Origin: Gemmatimonadales bacterium
Lineage (GTDB): Bacteria; Gemmatimonadota; Gemmatimonadetes; Gemmatimonadales; GWC2-71-9
Direction: 5' to 3'
Assembly (NCBI GenBank): GCA_013140635.1
Contig: JABFSM010000138.1
Location: forward strand, 1-34,434
DNA length: 34,434 nucleotides
Positions 1 through 3,695 of this stretch are shown here, piece by piece. The notes below the pieces were generated by a model, which ran no database searches, had not been told where the DNA came from, and was given only the letters and a program-made list of their open reading frames with translations. The position numbers and the translations under genes are program-made. The stretch's first letter is position 1, and every line of letters begins with the position of its first letter.

Positions 1-1
1 T

Positions 2-961
2 CGGCTCGGCCCCGCAGCGCCGGCCGTCCCACCATCGGCGCTCACCGCACAGGGGTGGCCGCTCGTTTCCGACGGAGTGCGCACCGTCATCCAGCGGCTT
101 CGGCACGCCTGCCCCACCCTGGCCGAGCGATTCACCTGCCAGCTCGGCGTGAAGACCGGTCTCAACCGGGTCTTTCTCGATCCGCCGCCACTGGAACCGG
201 AAATGATGCGGTGGGCCCTTCGCGGGCGGGATATCGGCGCCTTTCGGACTCGGCCCACCTGCCGGCTGCTCTGGCCCTGCGATCGGGCGGGCCGGCCTCT
301 CTCGCGGCTGCCGCCGCTGGCCGCGGCGTACCTGGCGCGGCATGCCGCGGACCTCGGACGTCGAGCGGACTCGAAGCGCGGGCCGCCGTGGACCCTCTTC
401 CGCACCGGGCCGGCATCGGCGCTCTATCGAGTCGTGTGGGCCGATGTCTCCCGCCGGCTGGAGGCGGTCGCCCTTCTTGGCGAGGCAGGGCTCGCCGAGA
501 TCCCTCTCAACAGCTGCTACCTGATCGCAGCACGCGATGCCGCCACGGCGCAACGGCTCACCGCGTGGCTCAACACGACCTGGTGTCGCGCCTTGGCGGT
601 GGCCGGCGCGGACTCGGCGTCAGGCGGGTACGCGAGGTTCAACGCGCGGATCGTCGGCTCCCTCCCCTGCCCCGCCGGTGTTCTGGGGGAGCCGTTCAGG
701 TTTGCCGAGCGCGGCGAGCGAGTCGCCGAGATGCCGCAGGAGGAACTCGATGCCCGAACCGCTTCCCTTCTTTCGCTTGGCCGGGAGGAGCAGCTCGCCC
801 TGGCCGGACTGGCTCGCGAATGCGCCGCGCCTCGTCGCGGAGTCGCTCATCCAGACCCGCGAACCGCTCGCCTCGTGGCTCCGTCCGGGGCCGGTGGCGC
901 CGGCGGAGGAAGTCGCGGCCGCGCTCGCCGCGGCGATGCTTCCGGCCGAGGCGGAGGATGA
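2..961 (+). CDS. N6-adenine DNA methyltransferase, C-terminal part (5' truncated by window)
   Basis: The reading frame is open from base 2, so the gene begins upstream of the window and only about 319 C-terminal residues are visible. They match the target-recognition region of Eco57I/TaqI-type class I N6-adenine methyltransferases: a GVKTGLNRVFL motif near base 140, a PLNSCYLI strand near 510, and the LNTTWCRALA...ARIVGSLPCP stretch (about 565-675) typical of the end of this domain. The catalytic NPPY and SAM-binding motifs would lie outside the window. The last 70 residues are Gly/Arg/Ala rich and overlap the helicase gene by 212 nt; no earlier in-frame stop exists. Inferred role: sequence-specific adenine methylation in a restriction or defence system with the downstream helicase. 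The family call is good; the exact system type is unknown. Confidence 0.75.
   Translation, partial: RLGPAAPAVPPSALTAQGWPLVSDGVRTVIQRLRHACPTLAERFTCQLGVKTGLNRVFLDPPPLEPEMMRWALRGRDIGAFRTRPTCRLLWPCDRAGRPLSRLPPLAAAYLARHAADLGRRADSKRGPPWTLFRTGPASALYRVVWADVSRRLEAVALLGEAGLAEIPLNSCYLIAARDAATAQRLTAWLNTTWCRALAVAGADSASGGYARFNARIVGSLPCPAGVLGEPFRFAERGERVAEMPQEELDARTASLLSLGREEQLALAGLARECAAPRRGVAHPDPRTARLVAPSGAGGAGGGSRGRARRGDASGRGGG
738..743 (+). promoter_or_regulatory. Shine-Dalgarno AGGAGG fixing the helicase start
   Basis: A perfect AGGAGG lies 6 nt before ATG 750, inside the methyltransferase coding region. It argues for a real start at 750 and for translational coupling across the long overlap. Confidence 0.75.
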
Positions 962-3038
962 TCCGCCGGCATGGCTCCGATCCGACCAGCGGCTCTCGTT
1001 CCGGAGAGCCTTGGCCGCGATTCGCCGGTTCGACGGGGCGATCCTCGCCGATCCCGTCGGCAGCGGCAAGACCTTCATCGCGCTCGCCGTGGCCGCCGCT
1101 CTTGCGCCGGGAAGGATCATTTCGGTCTTGGCGCCCGCAGTCGTGCTCCCGCAATGGCGCGAGGCCGCGAGCCTCGTCGGTCTCCCCATTTGCGCCCATT
1201 CGCACGAAACAGTGAGCCGCGGACGCCTACCGGCCGAACGGCGCGGGCCGGTAATCGTCGACGAGAGCCATCGGTTCAGGAATCCGGCTACCCAGCGCTA
1301 TCGGATGCTGGCGCCCTGGTGCACAGGACGGCGCGGCCTCTTGCTCACCGCAACGCCCGCCGTCAATCACCTGTCGGACCTGGCGCACCAACTCCTCCTC
1401 TTCGTTCGCCATAGCGCTCTGGCGGCGAATGGCCTCGCTTCGCTGCGGAGCGACGAACTCGATGGCCACACGGCGGCGCTGGCGCACCTCATCGTTACCG
1501 GTGAGGATCGAGCGGCGAAGGTGCCCGCTCGGCGCACGGTCGAGATACGCGCCGATGAATCGGCGAGTTCTCCGTTTGCGGCGCTGCAGGAAGCTATCGC
1601 CTCGCTCACCTTTTCGTCCGACGCCGGCATAGCGGCGCTCGCGCGCATGAGCTTTCTCCAGGCGCTCGGCTCGAGCCCGCCCGCGCTCCAGGAGATGATT
1701 GCCCGCTACCGCGCGCTCCTCCTCCATGCTCGGGAGGCGCGGGCGGCGGGGTGCTCCCCATCCCGTCAGGCGATTCGCGGCGCCGTCGGCCCTTGCGACG
1801 AACAGCTCGTCTTCTGGGCGCTTATCGGCGATGGCGGCTCCTTCTCCGATTTGGCCGTTCAAGATCTGGCCGCACTCGACTCCTGCGGCATACTGCTTCG
1901 GCGCTGGACCGATGCACCCAACGCAAAACTCACGGCGCTCCGGCGCCTCCTTGCCGACGACAGACCCACTCTCATCTTCACGACCGCCACCGCCACCGTG
2001 CGCCACATTCGCGACCGGCTCGACCGGCGCGGCGTGGCCTGGTGCACCGGCTCCGCGGCGGGGCTGGACGGGGGGCGCCTGAGCCGGGAAAGGGTGCTCG
2101 ACTGGTTCCGGACCAAACCACTGCCTACCGACCTTGTGCATCACCGCCCGACCGTCTTGGTGGCCACCGATGTGGCGTCGGAAGGGCTCGACCTTCCGCG
2201 CGTCGAGCGGGTGGTTCACTACGATCTGCCCTGGACCGCTACCCGGCTCGAGCAACGGAGCGGGCGGGCCCTCCGGCTCGGCTCCCGTCACCGAGAGGTG
2301 GAGATCGTCCGGTTTCGGCTGCCGGCGTTGCTTGAAGAGCAGATTCGTAAAGAGGCTGCGGTCGAGACAAAGGGGGGGCTGCCCAGAGTCTTGGGACTCA
2401 CCCCGGAGGTGAATGCGCCGTGGCGCTTCCGCGCCGACCTCTCGGAGGCGTGGGCAGAGGTTAGGCGGACCGAAGGGGTGGCGAGCCTGGCGGGAGAAGT
2501 ATCGGCGGCGGTGGCGGGATTTCGGATCACGACCTCCGATGGTACCACGGTGGCAACGGTCCTCGCCAAAACCCCGGCGGGCTGGAGCGACGCACCCGAG
2601 GTGGTCGCGGAGGTGCTCGCCGTCGCGCGGGGCGCGCGGGGTGCCGCGCCCCCATCGCGTCAACGGGTGAGGGAGTTGCTGAGGGCCCTTGCCGCGCCGG
2701 CCCGAACGGCGCTTCGGAGTGTCTCGGGTGGCGCCATCGAGTCAACCGCGAGGACGCCGGCGGTTCGGCAGACGATTCGTCGGATCCTTCGGCTCGCCGG
2801 CCTAGCCGCCAGAGCGCGGGATCGGCAACGACTCGAGCTCTTGGGGAGGGGACTCGCCTTCCTGAAGCGAGGGCACACGGCGGGAGAGGAGTGGGAGATC
2901 GTCCGCTGGTGCGGCCTCTCCGACCGGGAGTTGCCGCGGGCCCTGACCGGGCTCCCCCCGGAGGGTCCTCCAGCGCCGATCGAACGGATCTCACTGATCG
3001 GGATCCTCGTGGTGGAGCCAAGGGAGTGGTTCGGCTAG
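750..3038 (+). CDS. SF2 DExH-box (SNF2-like) helicase, defence-associated
   Basis: 762 residues from ATG 750, which has a perfect ribosome site. Superfamily 2 motifs are clear: Walker A GSGKT (104-108), DESH box (171-174), motif III TATP (200-203), motif V around VATDVASEGLD (471-481) and motif VI EQRSGRALRLG (501-511). The N-terminal 95 residues and the region after about 550, rich in Ala and Arg, are not recognised, and no nuclease motif was seen. The gene overlaps the upstream adenine methyltransferase by 212 nt, so the two are probably translated together. Helicase plus N6-methyltransferase pairs occur in DISARM-like, type I/ISP restriction and other defence cassettes; which one this is cannot be told because the 5' side is cut off. 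Inferred role: ATP-dependent translocation on DNA for restriction. It ends 9 nt before the HAD gene. Confidence 0.85.
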   Translation: MPEPLPFFRLAGRSSSPWPDWLANAPRLVAESLIQTREPLASWLRPGPVAPAEEVAAALAAAMLPAEAEDDPPAWLRSDQRLSFRRALAAIRRFDGAILADPVGSGKTFIALAVAAALAPGRIISVLAPAVVLPQWREAASLVGLPICAHSHETVSRGRLPAERRGPVIVDESHRFRNPATQRYRMLAPWCTGRRGLLLTATPAVNHLSDLAHQLLLFVRHSALAANGLASLRSDELDGHTAALAHLIVTGEDRAAKVPARRTVEIRADESASSPFAALQEAIASLTFSSDAGIAALARMSFLQALGSSPPALQEMIARYRALLLHAREARAAGCSPSRQAIRGAVGPCDEQLVFWALIGDGGSFSDLAVQDLAALDSCGILLRRWTDAPNAKLTALRRLLADDRPTLIFTTATATVRHIRDRLDRRGVAWCTGSAAGLDGGRLSRERVLDWFRTKPLPTDLVHHRPTVLVATDVASEGLDLPRVERVVHYDLPWTATRLEQRSGRALRLGSRHREVEIVRFRLPALLEEQIRKEAAVETKGGLPRVLGLTPEVNAPWRFRADLSEAWAEVRRTEGVASLAGEVSAAVAGFRITTSDGTTVATVLAKTPAGWSDAPEVVAEVLAVARGARGAAPPSRQRVRELLRALAAPARTALRSVSGGAIESTARTPAVRQTIRRILRLAGLAARARDRQRLELLGRGLAFLKRGHTAGEEWEIVRWCGLSDRELPRALTGLPPEGPPAPIERISLIGILVVEPREWFG

Positions 3039-3047: not shown

Positions 3048-3695
3048 ATGACTCGGATCACCACGGTGTTGTTCGATCTCGACGGCACGATCATCGATTC
3101 CGTCCGCCTCATCCTCGATAGCTACCATCACACCCTCGCGACCCACGGACTCGACGCCAAGAGCGACGACTACTGGTTGGCGGGGCTCGGCACCCCGCTC
3201 CGCGTACAGTTCCGGCCCTGGGCTGACGACCCTCCGCGCCTCGAGGCGATGATCGCCACCTATCGCGAGTACAATCTGGCCCACCACGACAGCCGAGTGA
3301 CCGCCTATCCCGGCGTGGTGGAGATGGTCCGGAAGGTGAAGAGCGCCGGGCTTCGAACCGGCCTCGTCACCAGCAAGAACTCCCCCGGGGCGCGGAGGGG
3401 CCTTCGGGTGGTCGGACTCGAAGAGGCGATGGAACTCGTGATCGGCGCCGAGGACGTGCAGAATCCGAAGCCGCACCCCGAGCCGATCGAGCTGGCGCTT
3501 CGGCGCCTGGGGCAAACGGCTGAAGAGGCCATATATGTAGGAGACAGCACCCATGACATGGAGTCGGGCCGCGCGGCCCGGGTCCTGACCGCCGCGGCGC
3601 TTTGGGGTCCGTTCGATCGGGCGCACCTCGCGGCGACCGCTCCCGACTACTGGCTTGAAACGCCCGGAGACCTGCTCACGATCGTTGGATTGTAG
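3048..3695 (+). CDS. HAD-superfamily phosphatase (phosphoglycolate phosphatase / PpaX-like)
   Basis: 215 residues, the usual size for this subfamily. All four HAD motifs are visible: DLDGT with nucleophile D10 and acid D12, motif II T108-S109 in GLVTSKN, motif III K141 in NPKPHP, and motif IV GDSTHD (165-170). The helical cap between residues 20 and 90 is of the small alpha-helical type found in phosphoglycolate phosphatases and PpaX pyrophosphatases. The enzyme should be a cytosolic Mg-dependent phosphomonoesterase; the substrate cannot be read from sequence. It lies 9 nt after the helicase but has its own candidate promoter, so it is probably not part of the defence cassette. Its 3' end overlaps the convergent glycosyltransferase gene by 20 nt. 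Confidence 0.88.
   Translation: MTRITTVLFDLDGTIIDSVRLILDSYHHTLATHGLDAKSDDYWLAGLGTPLRVQFRPWADDPPRLEAMIATYREYNLAHHDSRVTAYPGVVEMVRKVKSAGLRTGLVTSKNSPGARRGLRVVGLEEAMELVIGAEDVQNPKPHPEPIELALRRLGQTAEEAIYVGDSTHDMESGRAARVLTAAALWGPFDRAHLAATAPDYWLETPGDLLTIVGL

What the first reader, a model, noticed from the sequence alone, without database searches (positions are those of the whole stretch)
2..3038. Adenine methyltransferase and helicase fused by a 212-nt out-of-frame overlap: possible defence cassette
The sequence shows a TaqI/Eco57I-type target-recognition domain followed by an SF2 DExH helicase, the second starting at a perfect AGGAGG-ATG 212 nt inside the first gene. Such pairs are known parts of restriction-like systems (for example DISARM, type ISP). 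No nuclease is visible in the helicase, so the effector would be upstream or in its unknown C-terminal part. The long overlap suggests strict stoichiometric coupling.
Basis: partly seen in the sequence, partly recalled or inferred. Interest (0 to 1): 0.7.

Follow-up and report, generated by a model that had tools for sequence, protein, structure and literature searches.

The report
Order-wide nuclease-less methyltransferase–helicase gene pair
The two overlapping genes are a DNA-marking enzyme and a DNA-moving motor that nearly every member of this bacterial order (Gemmatimonadales) has inherited together at a stable chromosomal spot with an unchanging DNA-recognition part, so they look more like a built-in DNA-marking system than a mobile antivirus cassette.

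Summary
The reading frames are real: an Eco57I-type adenine methyltransferase (2..961, cut by the contig edge) overlaps an SNF2-type helicase (750..3038) by 212 nt. A neighbouring contig supplies the rest of the methyltransferase (~1,036 aa). Only ~92 nt of the overlap is shared with relatives; in the window a conserved TGA stop has become GGA (839-841), adding a non-conserved 40-aa tail. Neither protein has a detectable nuclease, and no DISARM or BREX partner was found at the locus. The pair is not patchy like defence genes: each gene is in 88 of 101 sampled genomes of the order (both in 86), versus type I restriction in 23 and MmeI-type enzymes in 17 of 298. It is usually single-copy, vertically inherited (no supported conflict between MTase and rpoB trees) and often sits by the same housekeeping genes. 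Its DNA-recognition domain diverges no faster than the catalytic domain (0 of 874 pairs lag by >0.2; MmeI control 30 of 49). Distant relatives in other phyla carry an N-terminal HKD/PLD nuclease on the helicase, missing here. Best reading: a restriction-like pair without nuclease that became a lineage-wide, fixed-specificity methylation/DNA-remodelling system. Whether it still blocks phages is untested.

The parts
2..961 (+). C-terminal ~319 aa of an Eco57I/TaqI-type N6-adenine methyltransferase (target-recognition domain); the rest is on contig G000:C176 (L003:3-2291, minus strand)
   Evidence: family alignment A1
738..743 (+). AGGAGG Shine-Dalgarno, 6 nt before the helicase ATG at 750
   Evidence: Read directly
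750..841 (+). Part of the overlap shared with relatives; downstream frame encodes a low-confidence, unconserved helicase N-terminus followed by the conserved (I/L)VAES motif
839..841 (+). GGA in the methyltransferase frame at the site where most f1 relatives have the TGA stop (stop lost here)
842..961 (+). Read-through tail of the methyltransferase frame, not conserved in relatives
750..3038 (+). SNF2-type SF2 helicase/translocase, 762 aa, Walker A GSGKT, DESH, TATP and QRSGR motifs intact, no nuclease motif
3048..3695 (+). HAD phosphatase: conserved neighbour directly downstream in many relatives; also present in genomes without the pair, so not an obligate partner

Best explanation
The locus is a two-gene chromosomal module inherited vertically through the order Gemmatimonadales: a large Eco57I-type adenine methyltransferase with a fixed DNA specificity, and an SNF2-type helicase without nuclease, the two usually produced by overlapping (coupled) translation. 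Shown: anatomy, intact catalytic motifs, co-occurrence, vertical inheritance, recurrent neighbourhood, lack of recognition-domain diversification, absence of the PLD domain that distant relatives have on the helicase. Inferred: the methyltransferase marks one asymmetric adenine motif on the chromosome and the helicase acts on DNA according to that mark (unmarked or hemimethylated sites), moving or displacing proteins rather than cutting. The most likely present role is housekeeping-type (replication, segregation or expression control), derived from a restriction-like ancestor. A residual non-cleaving anti-phage role is possible.
For: Each gene is in 88 of 101 order-level genomes (MTase; helicase 85 plus G064, G088, G097 found by profile); both in 86, one only in 4, neither in 11 (Fisher p = 4e-11, not corrected for relatedness). 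Adjacent in nearly all loci. Defence yardsticks in the same genomes are patchy: HsdR N-domain 23/101, MmeI-type 17/298, MZB 5/101. MTase versus rpoB trees of 24 genomes: no conflict among supported splits, 10 of 12 supported MTase splits shared, patristic rho 0.80; helicase versus rpoB rho 0.87. Recurrent neighbours: HAD directly next to the pair in f1, f2, f3, divergent Nudix upstream, 170-aa gene upstream, and an empty site with MntR-Nudix-u170-HAD in G028. Recognition-domain identity tracks catalytic identity: 0 of 874 pairs with TRD more than 0.2 below, mean difference -0.013, against 30 of 49 in MmeI-type enzymes of the same phylum. Motifs invariant over sequences 35-50% identical. Best structural match of the MTase is CamA, a conserved orphan methyltransferase, then BrxX and MmeI.
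Against: About 11% of sampled genomes lack both genes, including high-completeness ones, so it is not essential. The helicase is almost never kept without the methyltransferase or the reverse, which is also what a restriction-like system would show. Profile relatives are defence proteins. No methylome or phenotype is available. The MmeI control is small (15 sequences). Helicase versus rpoB trees have four conflicting split pairs. Some f1 loci (L185-L188) show none of the tested neighbours.
Confidence: 0.5

Rival explanations
1. A vertically inherited, non-cleaving defence system: the methyltransferase marks self DNA and the helicase strips or stalls processes on unmarked incoming DNA, as BREX blocks phage replication without cutting.
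For: Closest profiles are DrmMI/DrmD, BrxX/PglX and type IIG proteins; distant relatives carry a PLD nuclease on the helicase and some sit beside pAgo-SIR2, GmrSD or OLD-type genes; strict co-occurrence of the two genes.
Against: Near-fixed, vertical and in a recurrent housekeeping neighbourhood; recognition domain does not diversify; no other BREX or DISARM component nearby.
Confidence: 0.3
2. A minimal or decayed class 1 DISARM: DrmD-like helicase plus DrmMI-like methyltransferase without DrmA/B/C.
For: DrmD and DrmMI are among the best PADLOC/NCBIfam hits of the two proteins.
Against: Scores are far below the curated cut-off (81.6 versus 610 bits for DISARM_DrmD); no PADLOC hit in ten large window ORFs; MZB (DrmB-type) domain absent in G000 and in 96 of 101 genomes.
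Confidence: 0.05
3. A restriction system whose nuclease is supplied in trans by an unlinked gene or by the general nucleases of the cell.
For: The helicase lacks the PLD domain seen in distant relatives; the MTase N-terminal region is a small alpha/beta domain without conserved acidic residues.
Against: No nuclease co-occurs at the locus; the most recurrent neighbour is a HAD phosphatase that also exists in genomes without the pair.
Confidence: 0.1
4. The 212-nt overlap itself is functional, for example a programmed +1 frameshift that makes a fused protein.
For: The frames keep mostly the same +1 register in f1/f3 relatives, and L011 has no ATG/GTG/TTG before the helicase domain.
Against: A strong AGGAGG-ATG start exists in the window; starts with Shine-Dalgarno occur at -73 to -112 in several relatives; the helicase frame is the least conserved of the three frames over codons upstream of the last six before the MTase stop (0.112 versus 0.175 for the MTase frame) and that stretch is low-confidence in the model; f2 relatives have short overlaps.
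Confidence: 0.03

Closest known systems
Class 1 DISARM DrmD + DrmMI (defence)
   Same: SNF2-like helicase and adenine methyltransferase encoded side by side; among the best PADLOC/NCBIfam profiles
   Different: No DrmA/B/C; scores far below curated cut-offs; near-fixed vertical inheritance; no recognition-domain diversification
BREX (BrxX/PglX) and BREX-related DUF499 (Hma) systems, PMC12839542
   Same: Structural match of the MTase to BrxX; type 2 BR systems have an HKD + Swi2/Snf2 helicase plus N6-MTase, and type 3 lost the nuclease fusion
   Different: No DUF499 ATPase, PglZ, BrxC or DUF3780 gene was seen among the annotated neighbours; only two genes
PLD(HKD)-SNF2 helicase + Eco57I methyltransferase pairs in cyanobacteria, Woesebacteria, Chloroflexi and others (loci L119, L129, L139, L152)
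   Same: Homologous methyltransferase and helicase, often adjacent
   Different: Those helicases carry a ~260-aa N-terminal HKD nuclease domain; gene order often reversed; scattered distribution
Conserved orphan/housekeeping methyltransferases CamA, CcrM, Dam
   Same: Lineage-wide conservation, no nuclease, fixed specificity (here inferred); CamA is the top structural hit
   Different: They are single genes; here a helicase is an almost constant companion, and the enzyme is about twice as large as CamA
Type IIG/IIL enzymes (MmeI, BpuSI) and type ISP
   Same: Same methyltransferase plus spacer plus recognition-domain layout (MmeI_hel and Eco57I Pfam hits; MmeI/BpuSI structural hits)
   Different: No nuclease domain found; helicase is a separate protein; recognition domain not diversifying

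Membership tests
DISARM class 1 | DrmMI-type methyltransferase and DrmD helicase above curated cut-offs | tested here: not met
   DISARM_DrmD 81.6 bits versus cut-off 610; DrmMI 101.6 bits over partial stretches
DISARM class 1 | Core genes DrmA, DrmB, DrmC at the locus | tested here: not met
   none seen in 10 kb upstream or in ten large ORFs downstream; MZB (DrmB-type) domain absent in G000, 5/101 relatives. DrmA and DrmC not searched genome-wide
BREX | BrxC, PglZ and BrxA/B genes with PglX | tested here: not met
   none at the locus; PglZ-domain hits in 85/101 genomes are almost all ~525-aa, PorX-like in size, and G000 has none; MTase 43 bits versus cut-off 400
BREX-related DUF499/Hma system | DUF499 ATPase beside MTase and helicase | tested here: not met
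   no such neighbour among annotated ORFs; recurrent neighbours are HAD, Nudix and a 170-aa gene
Restriction-modification (type IIG/ISP/I) | Nuclease domain in the complex | tested here: not met
   No nuclease Pfam hit; no HKD motif in the helicase N-terminus; no conserved acidic motif in the MTase N-terminal domain
Restriction-modification | Patchy distribution and diversifying recognition domain | tested here: not met
   against controls 41, 79, 81
Conserved housekeeping methyltransferase (CamA/CcrM/Dam kind) | Lineage-wide vertical conservation and no nuclease | tested here: met
Conserved housekeeping methyltransferase (CamA/CcrM/Dam kind) | Same methylated motif in all members and a non-defence phenotype | not testable with these tools
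   Only indirect: recognition domain tracks catalytic domain
SNF2-type SF2 translocase | Walker A, DExH, TATP, motif V and VI intact | tested here: met
   Invariant columns in A2; Pfam Helicase_C and SNF2-rel_dom above cut-off; fold hits

The most novel reading that the evidence does not exclude
A whole bacterial order carries a core epigenetic system made of a fixed-specificity adenine methyltransferase and a dedicated SNF2 remodeller that acts according to its mark, evolved from a restriction-like ancestor by loss of the nuclease: in effect a bacterial methylation-guided DNA remodelling pair.
Probability: 0.35. Interest if true: 0.82.

Novelty: new variant of a known kind. Interest (0 to 1): 0.6.

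Why it matters
Adenine methyltransferases conserved across a whole order are rare (Dam, CcrM and CamA are the textbook conserved cases), and to my knowledge none of those keeps an SNF2 helicase as a constant partner. If confirmed, this gives a poorly studied phylum its own core epigenetic mark, shows a restriction-like system turned into a resident chromosomal function, and makes a clear prediction (one shared m6A motif in Gemmatimonadales methylomes) that long-read data can check. It also warns that defence-profile hits to MTase-helicase pairs can mislabel core genes as defence.

Tried and rejected
DISARM, BREX and DUF499/Hma membership: tested and not met. PglZ as a defence yardstick: unusable, because the hits look PorX-like. 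HAD phosphatase as a third functional component: the adjacency recurs, but the gene is also present in genomes without the pair and unlinked in others, so it is treated as a conserved neighbour. A dead PLD remnant in the ~190-aa N-terminal region of f9 helicases: suggestive by eye, but neither hmmsearch nor hhalign supports it, so not claimed. A hidden nuclease in the MTase N-terminal alpha/beta domain: no conserved acidic motif found. Programmed frameshift fusion: considered, not supported. Literature on a Gemmatimonadota methylome or on this pair: nothing found in the open library.

Full report
Observation. The window's first 961 bases encode the C-terminal part of a TaqI/Eco57I-type methyltransferase, and a helicase frame starts at ATG 750 behind AGGAGG (738-743) and ends at 3038. 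The mechanical overlap is 212 nt. The window is G000:C267, and contig G000:C176 repeats its first 141 bases with one mismatch, so the two are neighbours in the assembly. Joined in frame, the methyltransferase is about 1,036 aa with motif I DPAAGSGAF and motif IV NPPW. The join is an inference from a 141-base overlap.

What the overlap is. In most f1 relatives the methyltransferase stop TGA is embedded in the helicase codons Ala-Glu of a conserved (I/L)VAES motif (GATCGTCGCTGAG reads D-R-R-stop in one frame and IVAE in the other). In the window this TGA is GGA (839-841), so the frame runs on 120 nt; the tail is not conserved, and the 22 aligned relatives all have a stop in that frame within the next 30 codons. 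Over the codons upstream of the last six before the stop the helicase frame is the least conserved of the three, and in the last six it is the most conserved; helicase residues 1-15 have pLDDT below 50 and the first ~38 are low-confidence. The overlap thus looks like an ordinary coupling geometry: 40-112 nt in f1/f3, about 4-15 nt in most f2 loci, about 4 nt in f9, a ~500-nt gap in f4. (f1 is the window's own family, f2-f3 other families of the order, f4 and f9 other families of the class; f1 and f2 loci correspond to MAGs titled Gemmatimonadales and Gemmatimonadaceae.)

What the proteins are. The methyltransferase hits Eco57I, N6_Mtase and the MmeI spacer; its predicted structure (pLDDT 85, computed for the relative L035) is closest to CamA, then BrxX, M.BseCI and MmeI. 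The helicase has intact SNF2 motifs, a good model (pLDDT 83) and only SNF2/SF2 structural relatives; RapA is the best sequence match among solved structures. No nuclease is found in either. In distant homologues outside Gemmatimonadota (for example L119, L129, L139, L152) the helicase has a ~260-aa N-terminal region with a PLD-type HxK...GSSN motif, and some lie next to pAgo-SIR2, GmrSD or OLD-type genes. The MTase tree places the Gemmatimonadales sequences as one clade with support 1.0 and with f4/f9 at 0.95; other PLD-less members (Myxococcales, gut Proteobacteria) branch nearby with low support, and PLD-bearing lineages lie outside. Loss of the nuclease domain on the way to this group is the simplest reading, but direction is not proven.

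Distribution and inheritance. Of 101 order-level genomes, 88 have the MTase and 88 the helicase (85, plus G064, G088 and G097 recovered with the profile); 86 have both, 2 the MTase only, 2 the helicase only, 11 neither (Fisher p 4e-11, relatedness not corrected). Across a phylum sample the helicase profile hits 172 of 298. Controls: HsdR N-domain 23/101, MmeI-type 17/298, MZB 5/101. MTase and rpoB trees for 24 genomes agree without supported conflict (10 of 12 supported MTase splits shared); the helicase tree has four conflicting pairs but rho 0.87. The neighbourhood recurs: a HAD gene within about 0-100 nt downstream in many f1, f2 and f3 loci (directly upstream of the MTase in an f2 subset), a divergent Nudix gene upstream, and a 170-aa gene upstream in f1/f3. 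G028 has MntR-Nudix-u170-HAD without the pair. The HAD gene has one ortholog in most genomes, also in several without the pair, so it marks the place rather than the system.

Recognition domain. For 90 distinct Gemmatimonadota methyltransferases, 874 pairs have catalytic-domain identity above 0.5; in none does the recognition domain lag by more than 0.2, and the mean difference is -0.013. In MmeI-type enzymes of the same phylum 30 of 49 comparable pairs do lag by more than 0.2. The control is small and domain borders were set by motifs, but the contrast is large. It suggests that the methylated motif is conserved, which is the mark of Dam/CcrM/CamA-like enzymes rather than of diversifying restriction systems.

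Interpretation. The evidence favours a resident, nuclease-less methyltransferase-translocase pair with fixed specificity. I commit to a housekeeping-type methylation-guided DNA remodelling role at 0.5, a non-cleaving defence role at 0.3, and restriction with a nuclease in trans at 0.1. The mark, the complex and any phenotype are inferred, not shown. A related published frame is the BREX-related systems of PMC12839542 (type 2 with HKD-helicase, type 3 having lost the nuclease fusion), but the defining DUF499 ATPase was not seen here. No paper on a Gemmatimonadota methylome or on this pair was found; subscription literature and REBASE could not be searched.

Noticed in passing
L230 (G028:C113:1-9000): Empty site: same MntR-Nudix-170 aa-HAD neighbourhood as in the window's genome but without the methyltransferase-helicase pair.
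   Followed up: partly
L231 (G096) and L232 (G045): G096 (7.5 Mb) has the methyltransferase without a helicase next to it; G045 has the helicase with only the C-terminal part of the methyltransferase.
   Followed up: partly
L160 (G075:C3): The one fetched Gemmatimonadales genome in which the two genes are far apart, by about 12 kb on the same strand.
   Followed up: no
L182, L183, L088 (f9 type): Helicases here carry a ~190-aa N-terminal region without HKD motif and without detectable PLD similarity; origin unknown.
   Followed up: partly
L135:4231-14125 (Nitrospirae): PLD-helicase and methyltransferase homologues followed directly by pAgo and SIR2-like genes.
   Followed up: no
L127:4116-14796 (Soonwooa) and L119:7575-16061 (Aphanothece): Homologous pairs flanked by SMC-like/GmrSD (HEC-05) or OLD-type ATPase genes; in L119 the ATPase lies between the methyltransferase and the helicase.
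   Followed up: no
Relatives of G000: PglZ-domain proteins of ~525 aa (PorX-like in size) occur in about 85 of 101 genomes, so PglZ hits cannot be used as BREX markers in this order; only G087 has a high-scoring BREX-size one.
   Followed up: no
L011 (G001:C170): No ATG/GTG/TTG in the helicase frame between the preceding stop and the conserved domain; unusual start codon, frameshift or sequence error.
   Followed up: no
Window 1-141 versus L003 end: Contig-end overlap of exactly 141 bases with one mismatch (position 33), typical of a k-mer assembly graph edge; the window's left edge is an assembly break inside the gene.
   Followed up: yes
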